DNA from: Pelotomaculum schinkii | Lineage (GTDB): Bacteria; Bacillota; Desulfotomaculia; Desulfotomaculales; Pelotomaculaceae | NCBI RefSeq assembly: GCF_004369205.1 | Contig: NZ_QFGA01000002.1 | Span: 248,001-312,000 of the forward strand | Length of the DNA: 64,000 nt | Direction: 5' to 3' | Shown: piece by piece, positions 18,098 to 42,617 of the stretch | How the letters are laid out: every line of letters starts with the position of its first letter | Numbering within the stretch: position 1 is the stretch's first letter | Position numbers and translations under genes: made by a program | The notes under the pieces: generated by a model | Seen by the model: the letters and a program-made list of their open reading frames with translations, nothing else | Told to the model about the DNA's origin: nothing | Database searches by the model: none

Positions 18098-19187
18098 CCG
18101 TGCCTATCGGTATGAGTTAAAACCAAACATATCTCAGAGAATCCTCCTTGCCAAGCATGCCGGATGCGCTCGCTTCGCTTACAACTGGGGGCTAGCCCGC
18201 CGGATCGAGCTGTATCAAGCGGAAAAGAAGTCAACTAATGCTATGGCCCAACACCGGGCGTTGAATAAACTTAAACAGACAGATTTTTCCTGGATGTATG
18301 AGGTTTCCAAGTGTGCTCCTCAGGAAGCCCTGCGGGATCTCGACCGGGCATTCAAAAACTTTTTCACTGGTCTGAAAGCAGGAGAGAAGATCGGATTTCC
18401 CAAGTTCAAGAAGAAAGGTGTCCATGACTCTTTCCGATTGACGGGCGCAATCAAGGTTGAAGAGAAAGCCGTTCAGCTTCCCCGCCTGGGTATAATCCGT
18501 CTCAAAGAAGAATCAGCGATAGGTGGCCGGATTCTCTCGGCCACCGTCAGCAGAGAAGTGGATCGCTGGTTTGTCAGCTTTTCCTGTGAGGTAGCGATTC
18601 CAGATCCTGAACCTGTCTTCGGTGATGCTGTTGGCATTGACGTGGGGTTGCACCATTTTGCCGCCATGTCTGACGGGACGAAGATCGAAGCTCCTAAACC
18701 ACTGGGCAAGTATCTGAAAAGACTCAAGAGATTATCCAAGAAACACAGCAGGAAACAGAAAGGCTCCAACAACCGGAAGAAAAGCGCTCTTGACCTAGCC
18801 CGTCTTCACCGGCGCATCCGCAACATCCGGCAGGACTTCATGCACAAGCTCACGACAGAGCTGGCAAAAACCAAGTCAGAGATCGTGCTCGAAGATTTGA
18901 ATGTCCGCGGGATGTTGCAAAATGACCGGTTGTCCAGGCATATCGCTGACGTGGGCTGGGGAGAATTCCGGCGACAACTCACCTATAAGACTGTGTGGTA
19001 TGGGTCAGTGTTGACACTTGCTCCCCGTTTCTATCCCAGCAGCAAGACATGCTCATGTTGCGGCCATGTGAGGGATAGCATGCCTCTGTCTATTCGTGAA
19101 TGGGACTGTTCTTCCTGCGGGGCGCAGCATGACCGTGACGTTAATGCTGCTGTCAACCTGAAGAAATATACAAGAAGCCTTGCTTAA
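18087..19187 (+). CDS. tnpB: TnpB RNA-guided nuclease (IS200/IS605 OrfB)
   Basis: A 366-residue TnpB, the ancestor-type of Cas12 nucleases, which cuts DNA guided by an omega RNA made from its own 3' end. The RuvC triad is intact: D185 (GIDVGLHHFA), E269 (VLEDLNVRGM) and D351 (HDRDVNAA). The zinc finger is present (C322/C325 in SCCGH and C341/C344 in CSSCG), as is the N-terminal wedge start (YRYELKPNISQ). No tnpA transposase is nearby, so it is a solo element that would move only in trans. Its ATG overlaps the last codons of the methyltransferase by 11 bases, leaving no room for a normal left end. Length is a little under the usual 380-400. Confidence 0.93.
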   Translation: MIINRAYRYELKPNISQRILLAKHAGCARFAYNWGLARRIELYQAEKKSTNAMAQHRALNKLKQTDFSWMYEVSKCAPQEALRDLDRAFKNFFTGLKAGEKIGFPKFKKKGVHDSFRLTGAIKVEEKAVQLPRLGIIRLKEESAIGGRILSATVSREVDRWFVSFSCEVAIPDPEPVFGDAVGIDVGLHHFAAMSDGTKIEAPKPLGKYLKRLKRLSKKHSRKQKGSNNRKKSALDLARLHRRIRNIRQDFMHKLTTELAKTKSEIVLEDLNVRGMLQNDRLSRHIADVGWGEFRRQLTYKTVWYGSVLTLAPRFYPSSKTCSCCGHVRDSMPLSIREWDCSSCGAQHDRDVNAAVNLKKYTRSLA

Positions 19188-23122: not shown

Positions 23123-23389
23123 TGTATGTCTGCATATATAGTTTACCGAAATTGAAGTTGTATTATCCCCCGGTGGAGGTTCGTTGCTACGTATACCAAA
23201 GCTGGAGCTACTGCAGCTTCTTCAGGTAGAGCAGTAGCCGGTACTTTTCCAAAACCCGACGGCTTCGTTTAGAGTTAGAAGATCCTTGTTTCCTATGGGC
23301 TTATGCCCTTGACGCAGAAGCCTTTATATGATAAATTATGTCGGTATTCTTATTGTTAGTATTCTAACTATCCAACAGGGGTGGTGCTG

Positions 23390-23836
23390 ATGAATTTCCA
23401 GGAAGCTAAAGAATTGCACAATTTATTGTTTTCCTTTATAGGTATGTTTCATGAAAAGTTTCTATGCCGGTTCCGCCAGCATTATGACGGCAATCCCAGG
23501 CTTAAAAAAAACCAGGTCAAGATTATCAGTATTTTATACCAGCATGATCACCTGATCCCAACTGAAATCGGTAAAATGCTGGATATAGAAAAAGGTAGTC
23601 TGACTGCCCTTATAGATCAATTGGAAGATATGGGCCTGATTATACGACGCGCTGATCCCTGCGACAGACGAAAGCTATTAATATCACTCAGTGCTGCCGG
23701 CAGAGATGAAATGAATAAAATTATGGACGATCACACCCGAAGCCTGAGTGTTTTTTTCCGAGGCGTAGATCCCGGAGAAATAAAACAATTTGTAGCCAGC
23801 TTGCAATATGCAGTAGACTTCATGAAAAAATTTTAA
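23390..23836 (+). CDS. MarR-family transcriptional regulator
   Basis: A 148-residue winged-helix repressor. The recognition region is LIPTEIGKMLDIEKGSLTAL and the wing carries the diagnostic DPCDRRKLLISLSAAG, with dimerisation helices at both ends. I chose the ATG at 23390, which has AGGGGTGG at correct spacing; GTG codons just upstream are part of that site. It is followed after 3 bases by a MATE efflux gene, the classic repressor-pump pair, so it probably represses the pump until a drug-like ligand binds. Confidence 0.93.
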   Translation: MNFQEAKELHNLLFSFIGMFHEKFLCRFRQHYDGNPRLKKNQVKIISILYQHDHLIPTEIGKMLDIEKGSLTALIDQLEDMGLIIRRADPCDRRKLLISLSAAGRDEMNKIMDDHTRSLSVFFRGVDPGEIKQFVASLQYAVDFMKKF

Positions 23837-23839
23837 AAG

Positions 23840-25228
23840 GTGAATGTTGACAAAATGGAAAAAAGCTTAGAAATGCGCGATCGAAATATAGGCAGTCTGT
23901 TGTGGAAGTTTTCCTTGCCCGCTATCGTGGCTATGCTCATTAACGCACTCTACAACATTGTCGACAGGATATTTGTAGGGCGTGGGATCGGCTTTATCGC
24001 CATCGCCGCAACAACTGTGGCTTTCCCCATTATGATTATTCTAATGGCTGTATCCATGTTGGTCGGAATCGGCGCTACGGCATTGATTTCCATCCGTTTA
24101 GGACAGCAGAAAATGGAAGAAGCCGAAAAGGTAGCCGGCAATGCCATGGTTATGATAATTTTATTGCCAGTCATTATAGCCGTAATATACCTGCTCTTCC
24201 CCGAGCCGATTTTAATATTCTTTGGGGCAAGTGAAGAAGTTTTACCTTACGCCCGGGATTTTGCGCACATTATTATGCTGGGAGCGGCTTTTGGTTCCAT
24301 CAGCATGGGGATGAACAACTTTATCAGGGCGGAAGGCAATCCCAGGTTGGCTATGTTTACGCAAATTACCGGCGCGTTGATAAACGGAGTTTTAAACTAC
24401 ATTTTCATTTTCAAGTTGGGACTGGGGATAAAAGGTTCGGCTTTAGCTACTTTGTCCGGCCAATTCCTTTCAGCAATCTGGGTATTGAGTTATTTCCTGT
24501 CAGGCAGAAGCCTGGTCAAAATCAGATTAAAAAACCTTAAGTTGCAGCTGCCTATAATTATCAGCATTATATCTATTGGCTTTGCCCCTTTTGCCATGCA
24601 AGTCGCCAACAGTGTTCAGCAATCAATACTTAATAAAACCCTGTTGGTACATGGCGGGGATTTAGCTCTATCGGCTGTGGGCATTATTATGAGTATAGCT
24701 GCCTTATTATTCATGCCGATAGTGGGCTTAAGCCAGGGAGCACAACCCCTTATAGGCTTTAATTACGGCGCCCGGCAATATGACAGGGTTAAAGAGACGG
24801 TGAAAATAGCGGTGATCGCCGGCACCTGCATTGCTGTAGCCGGCTATACGGCCATTCATATCTGGCCGGTCCAAATTGTTGGGCTATTCAGCAAAGGGGA
24901 TACGGCGCTTACGGAAATGACCTCACAGGCAATGCGGGTGTTTTTTGCGCTATTTCCGGTTGTAGGATTTCAAATAATATGTTCAAACTATTTTCAAGCA
25001 GTGGGCAAACCGGTACAATCTACCATACTCAGCTTGTCCAGACAGGTACTGCTGTTTATCCCCTTGCTTCTGATCCTGCCAAATTTCTGGGGAATCAACG
25101 GAGTTTGGAGAACAGCGCCGATTGCTGACGGCCTGGCAGTTCTGCTGACGGCTACCCTTATTTATTTGGAAATGAAAAACCTCCCGCAAAATCAACCATT
25201 AATTGCACAGGTTAAGCAGTCTGTCTGA
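23840..25228 (+). CDS. MATE-family multidrug efflux transporter
   Basis: A 462-residue membrane protein with twelve hydrophobic segments in two similar halves, as in NorM/DinF/MepA-type Na+- or H+-coupled exporters. It begins with the usual LWKFSLPAIVAMLINALYN block and contains IVDRIFVG and the second-half counterpart MSIAALLFMPIVGLSQGAQP. The start is a GTG overlapping an AAAAGG site; an ATG five codons later is an alternative. It is co-transcribed with marR. By family habit (MepA type) substrates are cationic drugs, but this is inference. Confidence 0.93.
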   Translation: MNVDKMEKSLEMRDRNIGSLLWKFSLPAIVAMLINALYNIVDRIFVGRGIGFIAIAATTVAFPIMIILMAVSMLVGIGATALISIRLGQQKMEEAEKVAGNAMVMIILLPVIIAVIYLLFPEPILIFFGASEEVLPYARDFAHIIMLGAAFGSISMGMNNFIRAEGNPRLAMFTQITGALINGVLNYIFIFKLGLGIKGSALATLSGQFLSAIWVLSYFLSGRSLVKIRLKNLKLQLPIIISIISIGFAPFAMQVANSVQQSILNKTLLVHGGDLALSAVGIIMSIAALLFMPIVGLSQGAQPLIGFNYGARQYDRVKETVKIAVIAGTCIAVAGYTAIHIWPVQIVGLFSKGDTALTEMTSQAMRVFFALFPVVGFQIICSNYFQAVGKPVQSTILSLSRQVLLFIPLLLILPNFWGINGVWRTAPIADGLAVLLTATLIYLEMKNLPQNQPLIAQVKQSV

Positions 25229-25293
25229 GTTTTTATAATCGGAGCGGATGAATAGAACTCCAGCAGGTTTAAAAAGGCATGATTTTCAAAATA

Positions 25294-25328
25294 AGAAAAA
25301 ACCGTCTAGTTCTTACAGTAGACGGTCC
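25294..25328 (-). terminator. Terminator of the nitrilase-STAND gene
   Basis: On the minus strand ACCGTCTA (25319-25326) pairs with TAGACGGT (25301-25308) across a 10-base loop, followed by TTTTTT. It is 50 bases past the stop at 25379. It could also act weakly for the convergent MATE gene. Confidence 0.8.
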
Positions 25329-25378
25329 CACCAAAAGTTCAAACAAAAGATATCAGGGAAAATTTGGTCAAAAATAAA

Positions 25379-28300
25379 TTAGATGTTATTATCCTCGAAA
25401 TCATCCTCATTAACAACCTCATCCTCATCCGGAAGTCTAACTAACCCATTACCTGCAGTAGATGATATTTGTTCTTTAAGCCATTTAACCTGTTTAAGTG
25501 AAGAATCAAGTTCCTCTGCAATTTTCAATTGAGTAATTGCATCTGGATAATTTTTTTGTTTATATAGGTATTTTGCATATGCATATCTAGCAAAAGCACT
25601 GGCTTTATCAAAATCAATCGCAGATTTATAGAATTCTTCTGCCTTGCCAAATATCTTACGCTTTTCAAAGACATTTGCTAGCGATTGATATATAGCGGAA
25701 TATCGCCATTCTGGCACATTGACTTTATTTGCAATTTCTATTGATTGATTTAAATACTTTTCTCCTTGATCCAGCTTCCTTTTTCTTGATAATAAATCCC
25801 CGTATCCCGCTAGAACCCACCACGCATCACGATTCTTGCCCAAAGCTAAATTAATATAATGCTCAGCCTCCCTCCAAAATTCTAAATTACCATAACATAA
25901 TCCAATTTTAAATTTTATATCGACATCTTCAGGATACATGCCTTCAAGTATCTTATAATATTCAATAGCTTTACGGAATTCTTTTCCTCTAAATAACCTT
26001 AATGCCACTGGACGAATTTCATCCATAAAAATTTCCTTATATTCCTGAACCTTTTCATATTGAAGTGATTGAGCTAAATGTGATACTAGTTCCCCATAAT
26101 CCTCTATCCTTGTTGATGATTGTTTTATTTTGGATTCATAGTATTCAACAGCATGCTTATGGTATTCAATTCTTATTTCAAGTGGAATTTGATTAACAAA
26201 ATACTCCTTAATAATTGGATGCATCTGATAGAGACCTGTTTCTATATTAAATTCAAGCAAAAAATGATCGGTTAAAACATCAATCATTTCTACAGATTCG
26301 TCTCCAACAAACTTATCTATTACTTCAAACTCGAAAGGAACGTTATAAACTGAGATATAGCGAACCAACTCAATTTCCTTGGGCATTAAATCAATTCTTG
26401 CTAGTAGTAAAGGAATTAACCTATCTTGGAAACGTTTTTGAACAGTAGTATTATCAATAATTGATTGCATAGGATACTTTTCTAGTAACTGAGATATGAA
26501 TTTTGCAGCTAGCGGGTTACCGTGTAACCTATTTATTAATTCTATTGGAATATAGATAGATTTGTTTCCATGGAAAAGTTTCAAATTCCAGTCTATTATT
26601 CCTCTTATATATTGTTCTTCAAGTGGTTCCAAAACGATATTTGCAAAACCTTCTTCAGGATATTTAAACTTAAAAGGTGATGTAATAAAGATTTTATTTT
26701 TGCTACCTGAAACAGTTTTGGCTGAATATTTAATAAATCGATCAAATTTTATGTCAAAATAGTTACCTCTACTAAATGTATAGTGCCAGTCATCTATTAT
26801 TAAAACAGCAGAAGGCAAACTATTAAACCTATCAAAAATATTTTTAAATAAAGATTCCAAATTACTCTCAATCTGTGTTATTATTTCTTTTTCATCAAAG
26901 ATAAACTCCAGTAAGTTTAACAGGGAAAGGATAAAACGATTAAATCCTGTCCCTTCCGTTATATTAATAACTATTTTTTTCCAATTTGATGGTAGTACAT
27001 AATTAATTCCCTCATTAACGAAGGCTGTTTTTCCTATACCCCTTATGCCAAAAACAAAACAAGTTTTAATATTTTCATTATTAATAAATTCTCTCATTTC
27101 TTTAATTGCATTATCCCTACCAATATATGGACGATTAGTATCACTGATTACTTCAGAAAATTGTTCAGCATCTGGAGTAATAATCGTTTTTGCGGTAATA
27201 GATGGATAACACTTTTTTATTTGATCAAGTTTTCTCGATATATTATTCAATACTTCTAAGGCCTTCCTATTAAAGTTATCGCTGGTAACTATTGGTGCAA
27301 CAGCTTTCTGTATCACTTTTAAAAATTCATATTCTAAAAATTCAAGGGGATTTTCCGAGATAAATATGTAATCACAAAAAAATAGAACATCTTCCTTCTT
27401 AGCAATACCTTCTTCAATTATTTCTGAAAGAAAAGTCAATTTATAGTTTAAAATTGATGGTTGTTCTTTTATACTTGCAAGTGAATCCAGTTCTAAATGT
27501 AACTGAGTCGAATTTAAAGAAGGTGCCTTGTTTAATGAATCAAATATTCTTTCATGTAAATTATTCAATATAGGTATAATAGAAACAATTTTTATTGGCT
27601 TATGTAATGTCACTACACCACTTTTATTATATTGCCCTTCAATATCTACATCAGCAACAAGAATAACTTCATCGTTAGATGGCATTGCAATAGTTCCATC
27701 TTCATCTAAAAAAATGTCCTTATTATTTTTGTCACAGTATCCGAATATTTTCGACCCACCTATAGTTGCTTCATTAACATATATAATAGATTTTCCTTGA
27801 ATTCGATAATAATTTGCTGGAAAACTAAAATATGCTGTTTTTGGACTCCAAGACGGAACAACTATCAGACAAGGATTATCGTTTTGAGGTGATACTAAAG
27901 CCTCACTCAAGAAATCAACACAGATCATAACTCCTAAGTTAAAATTATAATCATTTAAATCAATAGAAATCCAATCCCAAGTTCTTTGAGACTCTTCTAA
28001 ATCCGGCTCAAATTTAGAAGGTCGAGTTTTAGGAACAAAGTATATTTTTTCATTTGGCATAACCACCGGACACATTGCTTGCCGAATATATTCATCTTTT
28101 ATATATTCATCGTTCTCCAGAAAATCATCGAATCCTATACTTTTATAATGGTTAGCGCATTTTTGTGTAACCATGTGGCTACCAGCAACTATAAAAATAT
28201 TGTTTTTAATGGAAAGTTCTTTTACTAACAATAAAAGATCAGATGGTATTGAATATTCTGGGAAAACAACAATGTTAACTTTTAATGAAGAACATTTATC

Positions 28301-28495
28301 TATAATAGATATAACTCTTCGAGATAAAAAATCTAAATATTTATCATATACATACTTTCTTGAGGCTTTTACCCCAACAACTGATGACCCTAATAAGTTT
28401 AATCCTATATCTTCACCAGTTGGTTCCATAAGTAAATTTTTATAAGCAGGGTGATACTTAATCTGAGCTAATGCAATTCTTAAATAATTACCCAC
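25379..28495 (-). CDS. Nitrilase-STAND NTPase-TPR protein (putative antiphage/conflict system)
   Basis: This 1038-residue protein has three parts. Residues 1-300 are a carbon-nitrogen hydrolase (nitrilase) domain with the complete Glu-Lys-Cys triad: E80 in VVFPEYSIP, K156 in FVPKTRPS and C192 in GVMICVDF. Residues 455-800 are a STAND-class P-loop NTPase with Walker A GIRGIGKT (483-490), Walker B LIIDD (565-569), a RLHGNPLAA motif (657-664) and a winged-helix-like region. Residues 830-1010 are helical TPR-like repeats (KAIEYYKILEGMYPEDVDIK and following). This effector-switch-sensor order is that of Avs-like immune NTPases, with nitrilase as the presumed effector. It starts at a GTG with a weak site, is strongly AT-rich and monocistronic, and lies between remnants. 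Function is inferred. Confidence 0.85.
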   Translation of the reverse strand: MGNYLRIALAQIKYHPAYKNLLMEPTGEDIGLNLLGSSVVGVKASRKYVYDKYLDFLSRRVISIIDKCSSLKVNIVVFPEYSIPSDLLLLVKELSIKNNIFIVAGSHMVTQKCANHYKSIGFDDFLENDEYIKDEYIRQAMCPVVMPNEKIYFVPKTRPSKFEPDLEESQRTWDWISIDLNDYNFNLGVMICVDFLSEALVSPQNDNPCLIVVPSWSPKTAYFSFPANYYRIQGKSIIYVNEATIGGSKIFGYCDKNNKDIFLDEDGTIAMPSNDEVILVADVDIEGQYNKSGVVTLHKPIKIVSIIPILNNLHERIFDSLNKAPSLNSTQLHLELDSLASIKEQPSILNYKLTFLSEIIEEGIAKKEDVLFFCDYIFISENPLEFLEYEFLKVIQKAVAPIVTSDNFNRKALEVLNNISRKLDQIKKCYPSITAKTIITPDAEQFSEVISDTNRPYIGRDNAIKEMREFINNENIKTCFVFGIRGIGKTAFVNEGINYVLPSNWKKIVINITEGTGFNRFILSLLNLLEFIFDEKEIITQIESNLESLFKNIFDRFNSLPSAVLIIDDWHYTFSRGNYFDIKFDRFIKYSAKTVSGSKNKIFITSPFKFKYPEEGFANIVLEPLEEQYIRGIIDWNLKLFHGNKSIYIPIELINRLHGNPLAAKFISQLLEKYPMQSIIDNTTVQKRFQDRLIPLLLARIDLMPKEIELVRYISVYNVPFEFEVIDKFVGDESVEMIDVLTDHFLLEFNIETGLYQMHPIIKEYFVNQIPLEIRIEYHKHAVEYYESKIKQSSTRIEDYGELVSHLAQSLQYEKVQEYKEIFMDEIRPVALRLFRGKEFRKAIEYYKILEGMYPEDVDIKFKIGLCYGNLEFWREAEHYINLALGKNRDAWWVLAGYGDLLSRKRKLDQGEKYLNQSIEIANKVNVPEWRYSAIYQSLANVFEKRKIFGKAEEFYKSAIDFDKASAFARYAYAKYLYKQKNYPDAITQLKIAEELDSSLKQVKWLKEQISSTAGNGLVRLPDEDEVVNEDDFEDNNI

Positions 28496-28750
28496 AAAAT
28501 ACCACTTCCCGTTAACGTAGAATTTTTTAACATTCGACAGAAATATAAATTATTCCTTTACATACAAAAAATTACTAAGAAAATATTCCTTAAAAAAGTT
28601 GTTCGTCAAAAATCATGAATAAACATTTCAACCTAAATCACACGAGATATAGTACTAGGAAAAATATCCAGTATATAGATTAATCCTGCCTACCATCACT
28701 TCCCTGCTGACCTCCACTTCTTAAAACAATAAAATGTAGCTAAGGAGGGA

Positions 28751-28972
28751 ATGAATATGCAGGCAATATGGAAAGGCTCAATATCATTTGGCCTCGTTAA
28801 CATACCGGTGAAAGTATGCGGCGCCGTTAATGCTAACCAAGTTTCCTTCAATCAGATACATGAGCCTTGCAAGAGTAGGATAAAGTACCGTAAGTACTGC
28901 CCTCACTGTGAAAAGGAAGTGCCGGCAGAAGAAATTATCAAAGGTAGTGGTAGAACCACCCAGGGTTACTAA
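28751..28972 (+). pseudogene. ku: Ku (NHEJ) N-terminal remnant
   Basis: The first about 65 codons match bacterial Ku proteins (AIWKGSISFGLVNIPVKV, VSFNQIH, KYCPHCEKEVPAEEIIKG). After IIKG the sequence diverges and stops at 28972; a full Ku is about 270 residues. The ribosome site (AAGGAGG) and start are intact. No ligase D gene is present, so end-joining is not encoded here. The sequence beyond (28973-29317) holds only a GC hairpin near 29037-29058 (AGCCCCTGG/CCAGGGGCT). Confidence 0.85.
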
Positions 28973-29317
28973 TCTTATGGAGGCTCTAAGATTGAGTATA
29001 GAGCAGTCTATGAAGAAGACGAAATCGCGTAAGAATAGCCCCTGGGGAACCAGGGGCTGTTCCTGTAATGTTTTTTAATTAAACGGCTTCAGTTTTAATA
29101 ACTTCTTACATAAATTATGTGGCACCCCACCATCAGCAATGCCGCGAAAACCTAAGCCGGTCTCTTATTCGGCTCCACCGTGCCATCAATACAGCTCAGA
29201 TTGCACATGCAATTCCTAAGGTATAGTCAACGTATATCATATTGGGAATATTCGCCAGAGTTTTAACTTAACCTGTCGGGTAGATTAAAAATTAACAAAG
29301 TGTAAAGGAGGTAAACC

Positions 29318-29440
29318 ATGACAAGTATAGCCATTGCCATAGGTTTAGGTTTCTTTATTATTGCAGCATTCATTGTAAAAATTGCAAAACGGGATATCAT
29401 AAAAATCACCTGTCTTTCGTCGTATTTTATTGGTAACTAA
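29318..29440 (+). CDS. 40-residue membrane microprotein
   Basis: An ATG preceded by a perfect AAAGGAGG with 6-base spacing opens 40 codons, MTSIAIAIGLGFFIIAAFIV then KIAKRDIIKITCLSSYFIGN. The first 20 residues form one hydrophobic helix and the rest is basic, an N-out single-pass topology or a small toxin-like peptide. No family is recognised. The strong ribosome site is the main argument that it is translated. It converges on the DUF4387 gene only 8 bases away. Confidence 0.55.
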   Translation: MTSIAIAIGLGFFIIAAFIVKIAKRDIIKITCLSSYFIGN

Positions 29441-29448
29441 CTTGCCGA

Positions 29449-29799
29449 TTAACTATCCAAATATTTTACGAAGTCTGAGCTAACCGGTACCTCTATACTC
29501 AACAAAGGGGCATTCTGCTGAGCCCCATACACATCTGTCTCGCCGAGGGCTCCTGATACCACCGGGCGTACAATTGTCGCCTTGATAGCGTTTGCTGCTT
29601 CAAACTCTACAACCCCGATAACCTTATCTATATCGATGTTGTATAGTCCGGCAATCAATTCTTTTGTAAACACCCCAGACCTCCGTGCCTGTTCAAAGGC
29701 CGCACGATCCTTGAAAATGATATCGAAAGTCAATTCATAAGGACCCGAATTCTTACTACGAACCACACTGGCTAGTTCGGTAATATTAATTTTTTTCAA
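29449..29799 (-). CDS. DUF4387 family protein
   Basis: A 116-residue protein of the DUF4387 type (ITELASVVRSKNSGPYELTF at the start, then TFDIIFKDRAAFEQ), which almost always follows AtuA-like genes and is thought to be the small subunit of the same enzyme. The start is a TTG with AAGGGGCG 7 bases ahead, and it begins 13 bases after the AtuA gene ends, so the two are one operon. The reaction is unknown; the family context suggests acyl-CoA or terpenoid acid catabolism. Confidence 0.85.
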   Translation of the reverse strand: MKKINITELASVVRSKNSGPYELTFDIIFKDRAAFEQARRSGVFTKELIAGLYNIDIDKVIGVVEFEAANAIKATIVRPVVSGALGETDVYGAQQNAPLLSIEVPVSSDFVKYLDS

Positions 29800-29812
29800 T
29801 CCAATCGCCCCT

Positions 29813-31168
29813 TTAAAGATTAATTAGTTTCATCGGGAAAAGACTATAGGGATTGTTTACCTCAATCAAGTGATAGACGCTGAACTGGTATACGGCCCCA
29901 CCTTTAAAGTCGGAGGGAGAGTAAGGAAATGCCAGGTTTCCCGCTGTAGCCATCCGGCCGGAGTAACCGCTGTGGAGCATGGTGGAACGGGCAAAGCTGC
30001 AAATCGTATCGGCTATGTCCTGGGTTTCCCCCACCGCTTCAATGATGATTCCTAATTCATGAGGTATCACATTTAGCTCCGGCTCCAGCCTGCCCATTAC
30101 GCCATTGCGGCCGTATAGCTTGAAGTCGAGAAAATATTGGTAACCTGACTCCTTAAAGTTATCCTGGACCCTTTCCCTTACTGTCGTGATGACCTCATCT
30201 ATTTTCTTCACCATGATCGGATCACGGCAGCCGGCAATGGATACTGTCCTGTAACCAGCCATCTTTACCCCTTCCAGCTTAATATAATACTTGTCCGTAG
30301 GGATAAACTTGCTGCCCGTAACCCTTACCCGGTTCTCTGTCACTTGCTCAAACTTTGCTTCCTTCAGCTCCAACAGTCCCCCCGGGCCGGGCAGCGCCAA
30401 TGGATTTGATTTTTCATAAAGGGTGTGGGCTGACACAGAGGTAACCGTACACCGCCGGATTGGGTTTAAGGGCTCCACTTCAAAATATCCCGGGCCCACC
30501 CGTCCCAGGAGGCAGTCACTGCCGCTGCCGGGAGATGAGGCAATAGCCCCGCATTCAAGAATTTTGCCCAGGTGAATAGCCAACCCCGGTTCAAAACCAG
30601 CGCGAATGGCCGGGGCCGCGAAGACCGACGGGTCGTAAGCACGGCCGGCCAAAATCACCTGCGCCCCTTCTTCCAGGGCAGCAATCAGAGGCTCGAACCC
30701 CATCTGTCCTACAACCCTGAATGTAGTATCCAGGTCTTCTTCCTTCAGCGGTGGCGCAGGATACAATGGAGTTACTTCACCTCGGCGCAACGCCTCTCTA
30801 ACCTGCTCCTTGTCCACCTCGGCATGAATTACCGCCATTGTAAAATGAAGCCCTTTTTCCCTGGCAATCTCTACGATTAAGTCATAGTCCCGTTTCAGGT
30901 GCGGCTCCCCACCGCTGCCCCCTGCCGTACCAATGAGTACCGGGATTTTCCTTTCTACCGCCGCTTCCAGTATCAACTCGAGGTCCCTTTTCACAGCGGC
31001 GCGGTTTGTAAAAGACTTCCCGGCGCCCAGGTAATACGGACCCGGGTCGGTGGAACCCGCGTCCACTGCTATGACATGAGGCTTTTGGCTTAACCCTTCT
31101 GTGAATGATTCCAACGGAAACCCATACCCAAGGATGGCCGTTGGAGACAAAATCCGCATTTCTTCCAT
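29813..31168 (-). CDS. AtuA-like (DUF1446) acyclic terpene utilisation family protein
   Basis: A 451-residue protein matching AtuA/DUF1446. The N-terminal block is ILSPTAILGYGFPLESF, followed by VIAVDAGSTDPGPYYLG, IGTAGGSGGEPHL and VILAGRAYDPSVFAA, all strongly conserved in this family. AtuA proteins are tied to citronellol/geranyl-CoA and related branched acyl degradation, but biochemical proof is limited. The ATG at 31168 has GGGGGA upstream and is preferred over one 14 codons earlier. It is coupled to the DUF4387 gene. A strong AAAGGAGGG/ATG pair at 31266 in another frame may be a leader ORF. Confidence 0.88.
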   Translation of the reverse strand: MEEMRILSPTAILGYGFPLESFTEGLSQKPHVIAVDAGSTDPGPYYLGAGKSFTNRAAVKRDLELILEAAVERKIPVLIGTAGGSGGEPHLKRDYDLIVEIAREKGLHFTMAVIHAEVDKEQVREALRRGEVTPLYPAPPLKEEDLDTTFRVVGQMGFEPLIAALEEGAQVILAGRAYDPSVFAAPAIRAGFEPGLAIHLGKILECGAIASSPGSGSDCLLGRVGPGYFEVEPLNPIRRCTVTSVSAHTLYEKSNPLALPGPGGLLELKEAKFEQVTENRVRVTGSKFIPTDKYYIKLEGVKMAGYRTVSIAGCRDPIMVKKIDEVITTVRERVQDNFKESGYQYFLDFKLYGRNGVMGRLEPELNVIPHELGIIIEAVGETQDIADTICSFARSTMLHSGYSGRMATAGNLAFPYSPSDFKGGAVYQFSVYHLIEVNNPYSLFPMKLINL

Positions 31169-31406
31169 CTGAATGAATCCCCCTTTGTTGCAAAAATAAA
31201 ATGACACCATTCATATATTTCAAAAATTAGAGTCCATTCCGATTTTGCTGATGCCCAGACTTTCATACGAACCCTCCTTTTTGAATTTTTTAATCTATAA
31301 TATTATTTATTAAGGATTATATATGGAACAACTACAAAAAAGACTCTTTTAACAAGGTCATTGCCGTAATTGGGCTAAATAATACGATCTTAGTTAAACA
31401 AAAAAA

Positions 31407-31440
31407 GTGGTTGAAGACAACAGCTTCAACCACTTTTTTC
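31407..31440 (-). terminator. Strong terminator below the activator remnant
   Basis: AAGTGGTTGAAG pairs with CTTCAACCACTT around a 7-base loop, with T-runs on both strands. It would stop transcription from the remnant above before the AtuA operon and so isolates that operon's promoter. Confidence 0.85.
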
Positions 31441-31455
31441 TCTTGTAATGCTTTT

Positions 31456-31600
31456 CTAGCTATTCATCTCATCTAATAAGCCTAGGAGTTTCATCTTGCG
31501 CCATAGCGTGGTGGTGCTTATACCCAGCTTTTTTGCAGCCCGGCTTCGTTTATAGCCAGTGTCCTTTAATATTAACTGCCAGAAGGCAGTCCCCCATAGG
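31456..31600 (-). pseudogene. C-terminal Fis-type HTH remnant of a sigma-54 activator
   Basis: The frame ends FWQLILKDTGYKRSRAAKKL then GISTTTLWRKMKLLGLL and a TAG at 31456. This is the Fis helix-turn-helix that closes sigma-54 enhancer-binding proteins. Nothing of the AAA+ domain is found upstream, so only the DNA-binding tail remains. It sits directly ahead of the AtuA operon and was probably its regulator. Confidence 0.7.
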
Positions 31601-32269
31601 TAAAAAGAAGTGTATTAACCCTTTCTTACTGGGGGAATGGACTAGTAATCGATGCGGTAGTCAATAACCGTGGCATACCCCCCCGGCCATGCTGGCAAAA
31701 GTACCCAGACAGACACTAAGCGTTTCAAAGTAATTGCCATCCCCTTACCCCCTGGATTGCTATTTGTAAAGCAGAAAATTCATATTTTTGAAATTTACTA
31801 TATCTAGCGCTTTTTACCTAAAATATAAAACTTAATGTAGACCACAGGGACTAAATTGTGCAAGACACCTGTTGCAAAGCCTGCGTATAAATGATTAGAA
31901 CCGGGCAATATACATATAAGCTACTTAAATGACAAGCTTATGGTACCTACGGCGAAGTCTACACGGGTCGAAAACCAGATCGTCGGACGTAGCAGAGTAT
32001 ACCCCCTCTTGGGAAAATAAGGCGGCGCACCGCGGTGTAAGCTTCCTGGGCTGAACTACATAGATCGCGGAAAAGCCTAATGGTGAAGCCAGCCCGGACG
32101 ATTTTTTCCTCTTCCATCCGTCCTCCTGCCTGCCAGGGAGAAATTGAGGTCAGTTCGAGCACATGTGCAATGCTAATTGAGTTAATGCGGAATGCAGGTT
32201 GCAGTACGAAACAAAAGATAAAGATATTTACCATATAAGACAAAAATCTATTTTTGGAGGACATTTGTC
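31601..32269. other. Gap with decayed sequence; one uncertain minus-strand frame
   Basis: No certain gene. A minus-strand frame of 101 codons (31959-32264) includes a coding-like EKIVRAGFTIRLFRDLCSSA stretch ending GGILCYVRRSGFRPV, but I cannot name it and the ribosome site is poor. The last 60 bases (AT-rich, ending in TTTGGAGGACATTTGTC) give the start site for the high-GC gene that follows. Confidence 0.4.
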
Positions 32270-32749
32270 ATGCTAGAAGTCTCGGGCAATCCTAACCCCA
32301 CATGGATTTTGTCTGAGCCAGAAGAGAAGGACGAGCGGGCCTTGCGGCTGACCTTCGCCTACCGCGGCGAGGAGATCGAGCTGGTCGTCGCCCAACGAGT
32401 GGCGATGTTCGTGCCGCCCGCCGACTCCCTGGAGGAGCGTGAGCCGCGAAGCGGCTTCTGGCTCGAGCTGCGTGACGCGGCCGGCGCCCTGGTGTTCAGG
32501 CAGGACCTGCACAACCCGATCGCCGCCGACTACGAGGTCTTCCCCGAGAATCCTGCCGGAGAGATCGTCCGGCTTCCGGCCGCGGCGCCGTCGGGGACGT
32601 TCACCTTGGTGATCCCCGAACCGGAACGCGCCGAGAACCTGGTCCTCGTCGCCAGCCCTTCCACACCCGAGGCCCGCAACCAAGCGGCCCGGGAGGTCGC
32701 CCGCTTCGACATGGCCGGGGTGCGGCGCACCGTGGAGGGCCGGCCGTGA
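32270..32749 (+). CDS. High-GC hypothetical protein upstream of M64 peptidase
   Basis: A 159-residue acidic protein, with no signal peptide, that looks mostly beta (LRLTFAYRGEEIELVVAQRV, then GFWLELRDAAGALVFRQDL and TFTLVIPEPERAENLVLVA). No family is known to me, but the layout resembles a small immunoglobulin-like domain. It overlaps the next gene by GTGA (32746-32749), so the two are translationally coupled and probably act together. G+C is near 68 per cent with G/C third positions, far from the host. Remarkably, the ribosome site (GGAGG) lies in AT-rich host-like DNA right up to the ATG. Confidence 0.75.
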   Translation: MLEVSGNPNPTWILSEPEEKDERALRLTFAYRGEEIELVVAQRVAMFVPPADSLEEREPRSGFWLELRDAAGALVFRQDLHNPIAADYEVFPENPAGEIVRLPAAAPSGTFTLVIPEPERAENLVLVASPSTPEARNQAAREVARFDMAGVRRTVEGRP

Positions 32750-34479
32750 GCGCCTCGGATGGGGCGGTCGTGGGGACGACCCAGATACTCAACAACGGGC
32801 CGGCGGCCCGCCGGTTCAACATCGTCATTCTGTCCGAGGGCTACCAGCAGGCCCAGCTGGGTCAGTTCGCCAACGACGCCGCCGCGTTCGTCACCCGGCT
32901 GTCCCGGACACCGCCGTTCCACCTGGTCATGAACTCGATCAACGTGTTCCGGGTGGACGTGAGCTCGACCGACACGGGGGCCGACGACCCCGTGACGTGC
33001 GGCGGCGGGGGCGGCACCGCCCGCACGTACTTCGACGCCACGTTCTGCGGCGACGGCACGAACCAACGTTTGTTGACCGTCAACAATACCTTAGCCCTAC
33101 AGGTGGCCAACGCCGAAGTACCCCAGCACCGCCTGGTCGTGGTCATCGTCAACTCGCCGATCTACGGGGGTTCAGGGGGCCCGGTGGCCGTCTACTCCCT
33201 CGCCGCCAACGCGGTCGACATCGCCCTGCACGAGATCGGCCACACCGCCTTCGCTCTGGCCGACGAGTACGAGACCTTCCGTGGGTGCGCGTCCGGCGAG
33301 CTCGACCACAACAACCACCCGGCGGTGGAGCCCGCCGCCGAAAACGTAACGGTCACCGGCTTCAACAACATCCAAAGGCTGAAGTGGCGCCGGTACGTCC
33401 GGGCGGGCACGGCGCTCCCGACGACCCGGAACGCCAACTGCGCGGTGTGCGACCCGCAGCCGTCACCGGTCCCCTCCGGCGCCGTAGGGGCGTTCGAGGG
33501 CGCCGACACCTACCACTGCTCCGCCTACCGTCCCGAGTTCGACTGCAAGATGCGCACGTTGGCGAGCGACTTCTGCCGGGTCTGCTCCGACGTCATCCTG
33601 CACCGCCTCTGGCAGTTCTCGCCGCTGTCCGTCCGCTTCGCCTGGAAGGGAGTGGGTGGTGACCAGACCCTCTACAACGGCCGGGCCAGCGAAAGCTACC
33701 AGTACCACCTGCCCGACTTCAAGAGCAGCACTGGCCCCGCGCTGATCAGCGACAACCAAGGAGCCTTCATGGCGTGGAAGGGCATCTCCAACGACCAGGG
33801 CATCTACTACAGCGTACTACGCCACATCGACGGGGTCACCTGGGACACGCAGCACAACGTGCCCGGCGTGGGCACGAGCACCGGCCCCGCCGCGGCCATG
33901 TTCCAGGGCCGGGCGTACCTGGCCTGGAAGGGCGCGTTCAACGACCAAGGCATCAACTTCACCCGCTTCGAGGGCGGCTTGCCTGCTGCCCAGCGCAACG
34001 TTCCCGGAGTGGGCACAAGCACGCGTCCGGCCCTCGCGGTCTACAGGGGCCGGCTGTATATGGCGTGGAAGGGCATCGCCAACGACCAGAGCATGTGGTT
34101 CGCCAGCTTCGACGGCAACCAGTGGAGCGCCCAGGCGCCGATCCCCAACGTCGGCACGAGCGCCTATCCCGCCCTGGCCGTGATCGGTGATCGCCTTTAC
34201 ATGGTGTGGAAGGGGATCGAGGGCGATCAGAGCGTGTGGTTCACCAGCTTCGACGGCTCGCGATGGGCGCCGCAGGCTCCGGTCCCCAACGTGGGGACGG
34301 CCACGGGCGTCTCGCTCTCGGCCGGTCCGGACCGGCTGTTCATGGCATGGAGCGGCGTCGCCGGCGATCCGAGCCTCTACTACACGACCTTCGACGGCAG
34401 GACGTGGGGCCGCCAGCACAACTACCTCGGCACCGGGTCGAGCGCCGTACCCGCGGTGCATGTCCGTTATTATGGCTGA
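32746..34479 (+). CDS. M64 (IgA-peptidase-like) metallopeptidase with six-repeat C-terminal domain
   Basis: A 577-residue protein. The catalytic domain (about 20-290) carries the zinc signature HEIGHTAFALADEYE (H162, E163, H166 and the downstream D173-E-Y) and the M64 opening FNIVILSEGYQ. From about residue 297 to the end come six repeats of about 45-50 residues, each with a core like MAWKGISNDQ...F DG..W and VPGVGTST.PAL, which would fit a six-bladed propeller or lectin-like module. There is no signal peptide, so export would need another route. It is strongly high-GC with actinobacterial codon use, and in an operon with the 159-residue gene. Target protein unknown. Confidence 0.88.
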   Translation: MSASDGAVVGTTQILNNGPAARRFNIVILSEGYQQAQLGQFANDAAAFVTRLSRTPPFHLVMNSINVFRVDVSSTDTGADDPVTCGGGGGTARTYFDATFCGDGTNQRLLTVNNTLALQVANAEVPQHRLVVVIVNSPIYGGSGGPVAVYSLAANAVDIALHEIGHTAFALADEYETFRGCASGELDHNNHPAVEPAAENVTVTGFNNIQRLKWRRYVRAGTALPTTRNANCAVCDPQPSPVPSGAVGAFEGADTYHCSAYRPEFDCKMRTLASDFCRVCSDVILHRLWQFSPLSVRFAWKGVGGDQTLYNGRASESYQYHLPDFKSSTGPALISDNQGAFMAWKGISNDQGIYYSVLRHIDGVTWDTQHNVPGVGTSTGPAAAMFQGRAYLAWKGAFNDQGINFTRFEGGLPAAQRNVPGVGTSTRPALAVYRGRLYMAWKGIANDQSMWFASFDGNQWSAQAPIPNVGTSAYPALAVIGDRLYMVWKGIEGDQSVWFTSFDGSRWAPQAPVPNVGTATGVSLSAGPDRLFMAWSGVAGDPSLYYTTFDGRTWGRQHNYLGTGSSAVPAVHVRYYG

Positions 34480-34625
34480 CCGCCGGGCTGGCGTCAGCGG
34501 TCGAACCCGCTCGCGGTCTCAACGTGGAAGGTGTGGGGGAAGGAGTCGACCAGCGCCACCGACACCAGGCGGTAGCCGCTTGGGCGAGCAGGGCGGCGTC
34601 GCGCCCCAGTGACCAGGCTCAGCTG
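34480..34625 (-). pseudogene. 3' end of a high-GC TrmA-like RNA methyltransferase gene
   Basis: On the minus strand the frame ends SGYRLVSVALVDSFPHTFHV and ETASGFDR-stop. This matches the C-terminus of class I TrmA/RlmD-type RNA uracil methyltransferases (GYxLxSVxxxDxFPxTxHVE). Just upstream the expected RDxALL motif appears in another frame (SLGRDAALLAQ), so the piece is frameshifted as well as truncated. It ends where the G+C falls back to host level near 34680. It is convergent with the M64 gene, as if copied with it from an actinobacterial chromosome. Confidence 0.6.
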
Positions 34626-34723
34626 TCCAGCACGAGGCTCCACTTTTCAATCTTTGCGCTCCACCGGGTACCCTTAGACTAACTGCTTAAACCATTTTAC
34701 ACAATAATTTTAATAAGAACGTG

Positions 34724-34757
34724 AAACCCCAGTTCATTTTGAAGTGGGGTTTTTTTG
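34724..34757 (+). terminator. Terminator after the high-GC segment
   Basis: AAACCCCA (34724-34731) pairs with TGGGGTTT (34745-34752) and is followed by further T. It is in host-like AT-rich sequence just right of the foreign segment. Confidence 0.8.
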
Positions 34758-34839
34758 ATGAAACTGCCCTTTAGTTTAAGAAGCTGCAAAGCATTACCAC
34801 ATTATGTATAAACCAAGTACGACAGCAAAGGGCAAAACG

Positions 34840-34877
34840 AGCAAGACCGCCTACTTTTTATAGTAGACGGTCTTGCT
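34840..34877 (-). terminator. Long hairpin after the acyl-CoA dehydrogenase gene
   Basis: AGCAAGACCGcCTAC (34840-34854) pairs with GTAGaCGGTCTTGCT (34863-34877) with one mismatch. It lies 16 bases past the stop at 34893 and probably ends that minus-strand transcript. Confidence 0.75.
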
Positions 34878-34892
34878 GCCTATAGGATTTGT

Positions 34893-36419
34893 TTAGAACA
34901 TTCTATCCTCAGTTACAAATTCCGGCGCCCACCTGTAGTATTCCTTGGGATAAGCTTTCTTCAGACCTTTGTAGTTGGCCTTGACGAGCTGTACGGCGCC
35001 TTTCCTGGTCCGGTAGGTCATTACAAGCCCCTGTTCCTGCAGGGCGTCGATGACTTTGCCCAATGCTTCATCATCTGCATCGATATATTGCTCGATATCA
35101 CCCAGTGTCATATGCAGTCCCTGGTTGATCCGGTAGTCTTCGCCCAGGACAGCCAGGACATTTTCTTCGCTGAGCGCCAATTTCTTTTCAACAGGCCCTG
35201 CTGCCGGCACCGGCACACCCAGTTTTTCGCTTATGACCCGGCGCGGCATCTGCATATCCTCCGCCATCAGTTTGAGCCCGGACCTGAAAATAACTAACCT
35301 ACAGGCTTCCAGAGTACCCCCCGCAATATAATCTGTCTTGGCAACTTCAAATACATTCTGAACCGGATAGAAACGGTTCACCCCGTCACCACCCATAACC
35401 TGAGTGGCGTCACAGCTTGATGCAAATGTGTTTTCAGCGCCACATGCCTTTACCATGCTTGCTTCGATGGTAATGTCCTTGCCAAGATCCCAAAGGTATG
35501 CGGTGTAGTAAACGGACATACGCGTCGTTTTTAGCCGCATGATGATATCAGCGATTCTGGTCTGGTTACCGGCAATATCAATGGTGGGTCTGCCGAACTG
35601 GACCCTCCTTTGAGAATAAGGTACTGTATATTGCAATAATATTTGCTGCCAGGCAGCGGCCGAGGCGGAAATCAGGGTTCTCTCAAAATTGAGCCCGTGC
35701 ATCAAAACCTTCCAGCCTTCACCCTCCTGGCCGATTCTGTTTTCCACCGGTATGATAACATTATCGAAATCAAGGGAACCATTTTGTACGTTCTCGAAAC
35801 CTAGAATTTCATTGATCCGTTCTGTGGTAAAGCCGGGTACCCCTTTTTCAACCCAGAAAGCTGTGAGATGACGGTGTTTTTTAACATCTTCCGGGTTGTT
35901 GCTTGACCTGGCGTAGACAATATAATGTTGTGCCACGCCGGCTCCGACGATAAAGCGCTTCTTGCCGTTGAGGACATAATGATCCCCTTCCGGTTTCGCT
36001 TCAACTTCTATACCAGCAGCATCGGTACCAGCGGTCACTTCGGTAATACCAACACACCCGATCTCACCTTGGGCAATACGCGGCAGATACTTTTTCTTTT
36101 GATCTTCCGTACCGAAATCTAGAAGCTGCATTACGCCGCCCATCATATTGCCCACGATGATCCTGCCCAATCCCGGGCTAACTTTGTGAACTTCCTCGGC
36201 CACGATGCAGCCGCCTGTGCAGCCCAGACCCATTCCACCATACTCCTTGGGGAAGGCGGCGCCTGTAAAGCCTGTTTTGCCAAACTCTTCATATAAATCA
36301 AAGGGGAATTCCCTCGTCCACCTGGTCTCCATTTCCCGTTTCGCTATCTTTTGCATAAACGCCCTTACATCTTTTGCTAACTGTTTCTGTTCTTCACTCC
36401 ACCAGGGAAAACTCTCCAT
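34893..36419 (-). CDS. Acyl-CoA dehydrogenase with C-terminal winged-helix-like extension
   Basis: A 508-residue flavoprotein. Residues 1-390 are a standard acyl-CoA dehydrogenase with an N-terminal helical part, the FAD-contact segment GCVGITEVTAGTD (121-133), and E371 in GGTLEACR at the catalytic-base position. Residues about 415-490 form an added domain (YRINQGLHMTLGDIEQYI, VIDALQEQGLVMTYRTRKGA) with a winged-helix pattern not seen in ordinary members. It oxidises an acyl-CoA to the enoyl-CoA; the substrate is unknown. It starts at an ATG with GGAGGC upstream and stands alone, with the OFA transporter and CoA-transferase further upstream on the same strand. Confidence 0.92.
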   Translation of the reverse strand: MESFPWWSEEQKQLAKDVRAFMQKIAKREMETRWTREFPFDLYEEFGKTGFTGAAFPKEYGGMGLGCTGGCIVAEEVHKVSPGLGRIIVGNMMGGVMQLLDFGTEDQKKKYLPRIAQGEIGCVGITEVTAGTDAAGIEVEAKPEGDHYVLNGKKRFIVGAGVAQHYIVYARSSNNPEDVKKHRHLTAFWVEKGVPGFTTERINEILGFENVQNGSLDFDNVIIPVENRIGQEGEGWKVLMHGLNFERTLISASAAAWQQILLQYTVPYSQRRVQFGRPTIDIAGNQTRIADIIMRLKTTRMSVYYTAYLWDLGKDITIEASMVKACGAENTFASSCDATQVMGGDGVNRFYPVQNVFEVAKTDYIAGGTLEACRLVIFRSGLKLMAEDMQMPRRVISEKLGVPVPAAGPVEKKLALSEENVLAVLGEDYRINQGLHMTLGDIEQYIDADDEALGKVIDALQEQGLVMTYRTRKGAVQLVKANYKGLKKAYPKEYYRWAPEFVTEDRMF

Positions 36420-40478: not shown

Positions 40479-42617
40479 TCATCTGTCCTCCAGCCACTTC
40501 TTAAGTAAATATCTGGTTCTTCCGTCGGTTGATTTTCCTCTCTCCAATCGGGACATTGTACTTTGATCTACACCTATTTCTTCAGCAGCCTGCATCTGGG
40601 AAAGACCACTTTGAAGCCGTGCTTTTTTTACAATCGGACCCATAAATGTCGCAGTTCGCTCCTGACAGGGAGTTGGCTGAGCTTCCCGTCTTTTTATTTT
40701 ATGGTCCCTTATTTTGCCGTAATGGTCCATGATTTCCTGGGGCGGCTCAATAATGACTTTCCAAACAAGCCATTCCTTCCACCAACCCTTTGTACCGACG
40801 ATATCCTCATTAACACACTCATATTGCCATCCTGTAATAATGTGATCCTGTTGAAGGATATCCAACGCCTTTTCCAAGCGCTCTTTCGTTTGGCTCGGGT
40901 TATGTTTACTGACTTCTTTATTTACGGCATTCAGAAGGGTTTCTACGTTGAACGGGGCAAGGTAAGCCCCCCCACCCTGGCGGTTTCTCCACTGCCAGGT
41001 CAGGTAACGAGTCAACCTCTTTTCCCATTGCTGGTTAATGGGATGATATTCTACTGCTTTCTGTGAGATGAGTGCCGTCTGACGTCCTGCTCCAAAAAGA
41101 AATTTGGAGAACACATCCCCAGGTCTTACCCGCCAAACATAGGAATCTTTTCCCTCCATAGTTCCCTGCCCGGACTTACTATCGACAACCCAGGCTTTAC
41201 TTTCACCCTGCCATTTTACTCTCTTCCGCTGCCTGCCTTTTTTCCCTTCTACTTCTTCAGTTACATCCATCTCAGCGACAACGATCCAGGTATTTGCTAA
41301 AATTGCGATATGACGGGCAATTTCTTGGCGCCACACATTCTTGTATCCACCTCTTCTGCCCGCGCCGTTTTTCTGTGGTTTTAAACCCCTAAAAGCTAGA
41401 ATGTCATCTGCAGTCACTGTGGCTATGTCCTCATAGTGAGATGCCTGTTTTAACCATATAGCTGAGACAATATCCACGACGTCGGCAGTAACGTCATCCA
41501 TGGACATAACATTTTGTCTCATTCGCTTCTGCCAGGCAATTATTTCAGTATTTGAAAGGTAAGGCTCTATGTCTACAGGGTCCGGCCTGAGCTGAACAAT
41601 TGCCCTGAGTTTTCTATTGCCGGTAGTCAAGTTAGCAGTGGGCCAGCTTTCTCCTTCAGGAATGGTAAAACCGCTTATGGCCAGGACTTCGCGAAACCGG
41701 TAATACAGCAAACAGTTTCCCACTCCCAGCAAGCTCCCACTAAAAGGCGATTCCATACTTCTATCAATGTGGAATGATATTTTTACATCTTGATTTTTTC
41801 CCTCCAGTGCCTTCAAACCCAATATTATCTCCAATTCTTCCATTGAGGGATTTGTCAAATCTATGCTTTTTACTATTGATCGAGACAGATCTTGTACGTA
41901 CATCCCTACCAGATAACGATACCTTCCGGAAAAAACCAGGGCATCATTATATAAATAATTATTAAGTATTTGTACTCTCTGTTCCTTATTCATAGAATCT
42001 AAGGCTTCCTTGCCAAAATTACTTTCCAGCCATTCTAACGCCATAACGATTAGGTTGGTTAAAAACCAATTCGCAAATTCTCTCCATATATATTTAACTT
42101 CCCGTAATGATTTTTGAAGAAAAGCTTCAACACTAATGAATACTGTATTAAAGTATTCTTCTTTTAGTCCGGTTATATAGTCCCTCTCTTCGTTTGTGGT
42201 TATTTCAATATAAGGCCTTTCTGTAATTGCATTTTTTAATCCTTTTTCTTTTATAGAATTATTGAGATGAAGAAGATATACATTTAACAATTTGGGGGTT
42301 ATAAGCCAAGCGATCTGTTTTGAAAGAGGATCGTTGTTATAAAAAAGGGTAACCCATTCATTTATGAGTTTTGAAGTTATAATCTTTTTTGCCTCTAAGA
42401 CTCTTTGGTATGTTTTCAGGGCATCTTCTTGATTAGTTTTGCCCTCTTTGTGGATATAATCAAATTCAAAATTTATATTGACTGGTAGTTTTGGTATATA
42501 GAGTAAGACTTTTTCTTTCCCAATATCTACTGTATTAGGGGTAAAGAAGTTCTTGCTAATTAATGACTCAACAGGTATATACTTACACACATCTTTGTGC
42601 TTAATATTGGTAATCAT
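40479..42617 (-). CDS. Unknown 712-residue protein with C-terminal XRE helix-turn-helix
   Basis: The family is not recognised. The C-terminal 55 residues are a Cro/C1 domain (SGLSQMQAAEEIGVDQSTMS). The preceding 650 residues are soluble and include FHIDRSMESPFSGSLLGVGN, a basic region NGAGRRGGYKNVWRQEIARH and a tryptophan-rich part (WQWRNRQGGGAYLAPFNV). The start has AAGGTGG 4 bases before the ATG. Next to its 3' end are 22-base repeats, so a plasmid-type replication initiator or large repressor of a lost element is my leading guess. Neighbouring genes give no further help. Confidence 0.6.
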   Translation of the reverse strand: MITNIKHKDVCKYIPVESLISKNFFTPNTVDIGKEKVLLYIPKLPVNINFEFDYIHKEGKTNQEDALKTYQRVLEAKKIITSKLINEWVTLFYNNDPLSKQIAWLITPKLLNVYLLHLNNSIKEKGLKNAITERPYIEITTNEERDYITGLKEEYFNTVFISVEAFLQKSLREVKYIWREFANWFLTNLIVMALEWLESNFGKEALDSMNKEQRVQILNNYLYNDALVFSGRYRYLVGMYVQDLSRSIVKSIDLTNPSMEELEIILGLKALEGKNQDVKISFHIDRSMESPFSGSLLGVGNCLLYYRFREVLAISGFTIPEGESWPTANLTTGNRKLRAIVQLRPDPVDIEPYLSNTEIIAWQKRMRQNVMSMDDVTADVVDIVSAIWLKQASHYEDIATVTADDILAFRGLKPQKNGAGRRGGYKNVWRQEIARHIAILANTWIVVAEMDVTEEVEGKKGRQRKRVKWQGESKAWVVDSKSGQGTMEGKDSYVWRVRPGDVFSKFLFGAGRQTALISQKAVEYHPINQQWEKRLTRYLTWQWRNRQGGGAYLAPFNVETLLNAVNKEVSKHNPSQTKERLEKALDILQQDHIITGWQYECVNEDIVGTKGWWKEWLVWKVIIEPPQEIMDHYGKIRDHKIKRREAQPTPCQERTATFMGPIVKKARLQSGLSQMQAAEEIGVDQSTMSRLERGKSTDGRTRYLLKKWLEDR

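What the first reader, a model, noticed from the sequence alone, without database searches (positions are those of the whole stretch)
32270..34680. Sharp high-GC actinobacterial-like segment with M64 peptidase
About 2.4 kb with roughly 68 per cent G+C and G/C third positions begins exactly at an ATG served by an AT-rich, host-like GGAGG site. It ends inside a truncated, frameshifted TrmA-like methyltransferase tail. The segment carries two coupled genes. Such clean edges mean recent transfer by illegitimate recombination or a chimeric contig. If real, a foreign ORF has been placed directly on a host ribosome site.
Basis: partly seen in the sequence, partly recalled or inferred. Interest (0 to 1): 0.7.

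Follow-up and report, generated by a model that had tools for sequence, protein, structure and literature searches.

The report
Foreign two-gene protease in genomic island
A 2.4-kb piece of high-GC DNA carrying a two-gene zinc protease (a catalytic M64 peptidase and a small partner that looks like its detached front domain) sits in a Firmicute inside a 9.5-kb stretch that two relatives of the same genus lack, so it is most likely an ordinary recent gene capture with an interesting split enzyme inside.

Summary
The high-GC segment is real: GC 0.68, third positions 0.88-0.91, against about 0.5 in host genes. The edges are less exact than claimed. The left composition break is 32311-32338, not ATG 32270. 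Eleven related loci start ORF1 12-15 residues before a conserved motif, which matches TTG 32309; the ATG adds 13 codons found in no relative. The right break is 34632-34680, beyond a frameshifted RlmD/TrmA tail. The segment is one part of a 9.5-kb island (about 25330-34845) of mixed composition. In one congener the flanking MATE and acyl-CoA dehydrogenase genes are adjacent; in a second, the dehydrogenase lies 200 bp from a MATE relic. The two island ends carry the only two copies in the genome of one terminator-like hairpin. No M64-domain homologue was found in 59 relatives or 397 other genomes of the phylum, while 10 of 395 genomes of one actinobacterial family have one (47-55% identical). 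The window copy falls outside that clade, so the donor is unknown. The module is an M64 zinc peptidase split in two: ORF1 is predicted to fold like the N-terminal domain of BACOVA_00663/BF3526 and overlaps the catalytic gene by GTGA. Chimeric assembly is unlikely but not excluded without reads.

The parts
25301..25327 (+). Terminator-like hairpin, left edge of island (ACCGTCTAGTTCTTACAGTAGACGGTC)
   Evidence: One of only two matches in the 4.44-Mb genome with up to 3 mismatches; congener G001 has a single hairpin of this kind between MATE and ACAD genes
25379..28495 (-). Island gene: nitrilase-like + nSTAND + TPR protein, GC 0.305
   Evidence: Pfam nSTAND6/TPR; PADLOC nitrilase part of RT_UG29; GC
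29449..31210 (-). Island genes DUF4387 and AtuA-family
   Evidence: PF14330 3.1e-38, PF07287 1.6e-25
31459..31614 (-). Tail of a truncated sigma-54 activator (Fis-type HTH); body missing
   Evidence: PF02954 2.3e-9; DhaR/PrpR C-termini in NCBIfam
31620..32308 (.). Non-coding spacer of unknown origin; ends with GGAGG, ATG 32270 and a 13-codon leader
   Evidence: No Rfam match at gathering level, no family match of the reading frames tested, no homologous copy in own genome, congeners or plasmids
32309..32749 (+). ORF1 from inferred native TTG start: beta-sandwich partner, predicted fold like the M64 N-terminal domain (reading frame open from ATG 32270)
   Evidence: Alignment A1, start positions in 11 loci, AlphaFold + Foldseek
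32746..34479 (+). M64 zinc peptidase (catalytic residues about 14-290) with six ~47-aa W(K/S)G repeats, propeller-like
   Evidence: PF09471 1.6e-37; 4df9/3p1v 1.1e-20; repeats
34494..34612 (-). Truncated, frameshifted C-terminal tail of an RlmD/TrmA-type methyltransferase
   Evidence: NF009639 8.3e-5; reading frames
34632..34680 (.). Right composition break of high-GC segment
   Evidence: GC change-point interval
34846..34872 (+). Terminator-like hairpin, right edge of island (ACCGCCTACTTTTTATAGTAGACGGTC)
   Evidence: Second of only two matches in genome

Best explanation
The segment is a recently acquired piece of foreign, high-GC DNA that landed inside an island of accreted genes between two convergent host genes (MATE exporter and acyl-CoA dehydrogenase). 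It carries a complete two-gene protease: ORF1, predicted to be the detached N-terminal beta-sandwich domain of an M64 peptidase, and the catalytic M64 metallopeptidase with a C-terminal repeat (propeller-like, probably lectin-like) domain. The two are translationally coupled and probably assemble into one zinc protease that binds a glycan or protein target through the repeats. Shown: composition, synteny, empty site in a congener, conserved gene pair, zinc ligands. Inferred: assembly of the two chains, target binding, expression from ATG 32270 or TTG 32309, uptake by end-joining.
For: GC and GC3 far from host. MATE and ACAD genes adjacent in congener G001; in G002 a MATE-end relic lies 200 bp from ACAD. 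Hairpin found only at the two island ends. No M64-domain homologue in 59 relatives or 397 other phylum genomes. 10 of 395 genomes of one actinobacterial family carry it at 47-55% identity, and ORF1 is recognisable directly upstream in 12 of 13 loci. The stop/start overlap ATGA occurs in most of them and GTGA in the window. The ORF1 model (pLDDT 75) has as its 13 best PDB matches only M64 peptidases, prob 0.99-1.00, E from 2e-3. HEIGHTAFALAD aligns with the BF3526 zinc site.
Against: Profile-profile comparison of ORF1 with Bacteroidota M64_N gave nothing (prob 0.2%, four rows per side), and Pfam M64_N does not hit ORF1. Foldseek TM-scores are low (0.4). The donor is not identified; the copy lies outside the sampled actinobacterial clade. 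No integrase or recombination site is recognised. The metzincin glycine is alanine here. Expression is unknown. The two hairpin copies differ at several positions, so they need not be a duplication made by the insertion.
Confidence: 0.72

Rival explanations
1. Assembly or library chimera: a contaminating high-GC fragment was joined into the contig.
For: Abrupt composition edges, a truncated and frameshifted RlmD tail at one end, no recombination signature at the edges, no close donor.
Against: Window lies in a contig at least 734 kb long of an 8-contig, 100% complete, 1.49% contaminated genome. A chimera needs two joins within one intergenic space. The surrounding 9.5 kb is itself absent from congeners and built of pieces of different GC, as expected of an insertion hot spot.
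Confidence: 0.12
2. The island is one mobile element that brought the protease as cargo, with the hairpins as its ends.
For: Hairpin occurs only at the two ends of the island; the island is absent from two congeners; it holds a nitrilase-STAND gene of defence type.
Against: No integrase, transposase or relaxase recognised in 25330-34845. Parts differ widely in GC (0.305, 0.44-0.52, 0.68), which indicates separate origins. The hairpins look like ordinary terminators, one of which G001 also has.
Confidence: 0.1
3. Old vertically inherited gene that escaped amelioration and was lost in relatives.
For: Intact 577-codon reading frame.
Against: None in 59 relatives or 397 other phylum genomes; GC3 0.91 in a host with about 0.5.
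Confidence: 0.02

Closest known systems
M64 peptidases BF3526 / BACOVA_00663 (PDB 4df9, 9qdi, 3p1v)
   Same: Same catalytic domain and zinc ligands; predicted ORF1 fold matches these entries best
   Different: In related Bacteroidota proteins the N-terminal domain (PF16217) and catalytic domain are one chain; here they are two coupled genes without an evident signal peptide, plus a repeat domain
Two-gene M64 modules of Micrococcaceae and Cellulomonas (L006, L008, L061-L070)
   Same: Same upstream partner and usually the same 4-nt stop/start overlap; 47-57% identity in the catalytic domain
   Different: In Sinomonas and Cellulomonas (the two read in full) the C-terminal repeats are of another type (YAGHLDVF...WW)
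Nitrososphaerales MAG locus L007
   Same: ORF1-M64 pair, strongest ORF1 match found
   Different: GC 0.39, catalytic frame broken by a stop, next to a phage-type tail sheath gene
IgA protease of Thomasclavelia ramosa (ThomasA, PMC12402451)
   Same: M64 catalytic domain with zinc motif
   Different: Single multidomain protein with signal peptide; IgA cleavage is neither claimed nor tested here

Membership tests
M64 metallopeptidase (PF09471) | Catalytic domain profile above curated cut-off | tested here: met
   129.7 bits against cut-off 26
M64 metallopeptidase (PF09471) | Zinc ligands and base H, E, H, D of HEXXHXXXGXXD (PMC12402451) | tested here: met
   HEIGHTAFALAD, aligned with BF3526
M64 metallopeptidase (PF09471) | Glycine of HEXXHXXXGXXD | tested here: not met
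   Alanine in the window; one relative has Arg there, so the position varies in this subfamily; membership is by profile and zinc ligands
M64 metallopeptidase (PF09471) | N-terminal M64_N domain (PF16217), found in the Bacteroidota subgroup | tested here: inconclusive
   No Pfam or profile match; predicted fold of separate ORF1 matches M64 entries best
M64 metallopeptidase (PF09471) | Proteolytic activity | not testable with these tools
   Needs expression and assay
Horizontally acquired genomic island | Absent from close relatives at the same site | tested here: met
   G001 and G002
Horizontally acquired genomic island | Atypical composition | tested here: met
Integrative mobile element | Integrase or transposase with recognisable ends | tested here: not met
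   None among the reading frames examined in 25330-34845; so filed only as an insertion region
Assembly chimera | Reads do not span the junctions | not testable with these tools
   No reads available

The most novel reading that the evidence does not exclude
The split M64 pair is a mobile protease module, used as cargo of contractile injection systems in some hosts (tail sheath gene beside it in an archaeal MAG), that moves between high-GC bacteria, archaea and Firmicutes; in this genome it was captured in frame behind a 13-codon leader with a new ribosome site.
Probability: 0.1. Interest if true: 0.6.

Novelty: new variant of a known kind. Interest (0 to 1): 0.33.

Why it matters
It gives a recent and nearly unameliorated transfer of a complete two-gene enzyme across phyla, with an empty site in a congener. 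It also suggests a subgroup of M64 peptidases in which the N-terminal domain is a separate protein, which would allow a direct test of what that domain does (folding, inhibition or substrate binding).

Tried and rejected
Mobile-element remnant in 31620-32270: no Rfam family at gathering level, all weak hits being far below their cut-offs; no copy in own genome or plasmids. A group II intron 5' part was suspected by eye and not supported. IS21-type end at the right edge (34620-34680): suspected from memory, no copies in window, genome or plasmids. Whole-protein AlphaFold of M64 gave pLDDT 38 and was not used. Phage or viral origin: no match in viral contigs and only distant M64 matches in two phage records. 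ORF1 has no match on plasmids and no PHROG family. The G001:C15 match upstream of AtuA proved to be a short shared stretch between other genes, not synteny.

Full report
Observation. The window is bases 248001-312000 of contig C2 of a 4.44-Mb, 8-contig genome rated 100% complete and 1.49% contaminated. GC rises to 0.67-0.69 between about 32.3 and 34.65 kb. GC3 is 0.88-0.91 in the two genes of the segment and 0.47-0.62 in most neighbouring genes; exceptions are island genes, such as the nitrilase-STAND gene at 0.21. A two-rate GC change-point fit puts the left break at 32311-32338 and the right one at 34632-34680, so the left break is not at ATG 32270.

Start of ORF1. In 11 related loci the ORF1 start codon lies 12-15 residues before a conserved RL[IT]F.Y motif. 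In the window the TTG at 32309 lies at -12 and the ATG at 32270 at -25. The 13 extra residues have no counterpart in the aligned relatives, and residues 1-19 are predicted with low confidence, as a disordered stretch. I infer that the donor gene began at TTG 32309 and that ATG 32270 plus the GGAGG site form an upstream in-frame leader. Whether that leader is host DNA could not be shown, since 31620-32270 has no match in congeners, own genome or plasmids.

Surroundings. In congener G001 the MATE gene (window 23293-25328) is followed at once by the acyl-CoA dehydrogenase gene (window 34833-36419). In G002 a relic of the MATE end lies 200 bp from the dehydrogenase. The interval 25330-34845 is therefore an island missing from both. 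It holds a nitrilase-STAND-TPR gene (GC 0.305), DUF4387 and AtuA genes, the tail of a broken sigma-54 activator, a non-coding spacer and the high-GC segment. A terminator-like hairpin occurs at both island ends and, with up to 3 mismatches, nowhere else in the genome. The two copies differ from each other at several positions, so they may be older than the insertion.

Origin. No M64-domain relative was found in 59 close genomes or in 397 other genomes of the phylum, where only the C-terminal repeats matched in two. Broad samples of actinobacteria gave few, but 10 of 395 genomes of the Sinomonas family carry it at 47-55% identity. In a maximum-likelihood tree the window copy falls outside this actinobacterial clade, weakly with an archaeal MAG copy (80/77). 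The donor is a high-GC organism of unknown phylum. At the right end the segment carries the last part of an RlmD/TrmA-type gene on the opposite strand with one base missing.

The enzyme. The second gene is an M64 zinc peptidase with zinc ligands intact and Ala in place of the metzincin Gly of the motif given in PMC12402451. Its C-terminal half has six repeats of about 47 residues, with a weak sialidase match and similar repeats in proteins of other phyla, such as a chitinase-type protein on a Tolypothrix plasmid. ORF1 stands directly upstream in all loci where it could be read. Its AlphaFold model (pLDDT 75) has M64 peptidases as its 13 best PDB matches. Bacteroidota M64 proteins have an N-terminal domain PF16217 ahead of the catalytic domain, which ORF1 would replace. 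Sequence profiles do not confirm this, so the split-domain reading rests on predicted fold and gene order.

Judgement. The most likely reading is a recent capture of foreign DNA in an insertion-prone intergenic region, with a complete two-gene protease. A chimeric contig cannot be ruled out without reads. The association of the module with a tail sheath gene in one archaeal MAG is a single case and only a lead.

Noticed in passing
17246-19187 (+): A leucine-carboxyl-methyltransferase-like domain (residues 42-157) runs in frame into a serine resolvase N-terminal domain (174-275), followed by an overlapping TnpB/Cas12f-like OrfB gene: looks like an IS607-type element fused into a methyltransferase gene.
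   Followed up: partly
25379-28495 (-): 1038-aa protein with nitrilase-like N-terminus (PADLOC RT_UG29 / RTasNitrilase), nSTAND6 ATPase and TPR repeats, GC 0.305: candidate defence STAND protein in the same island.
   Followed up: partly
40479-42617 (-): 712-aa protein of unknown function with a C-terminal HTH; congener G002 has a 96% ortholog and a shorter second copy beside duplicated CoA-transferase/MFS genes.
   Followed up: no
L007:2-3143: Contig of a Nitrososphaerales MAG with a phage-type tail sheath gene upstream of an ORF1-M64 pair whose catalytic frame holds a stop.
   Followed up: partly
8678-10986 (-): IS21-type istB/istA pair next to an amidohydrolase gene (istA by reading its sequence).
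   Followed up: no
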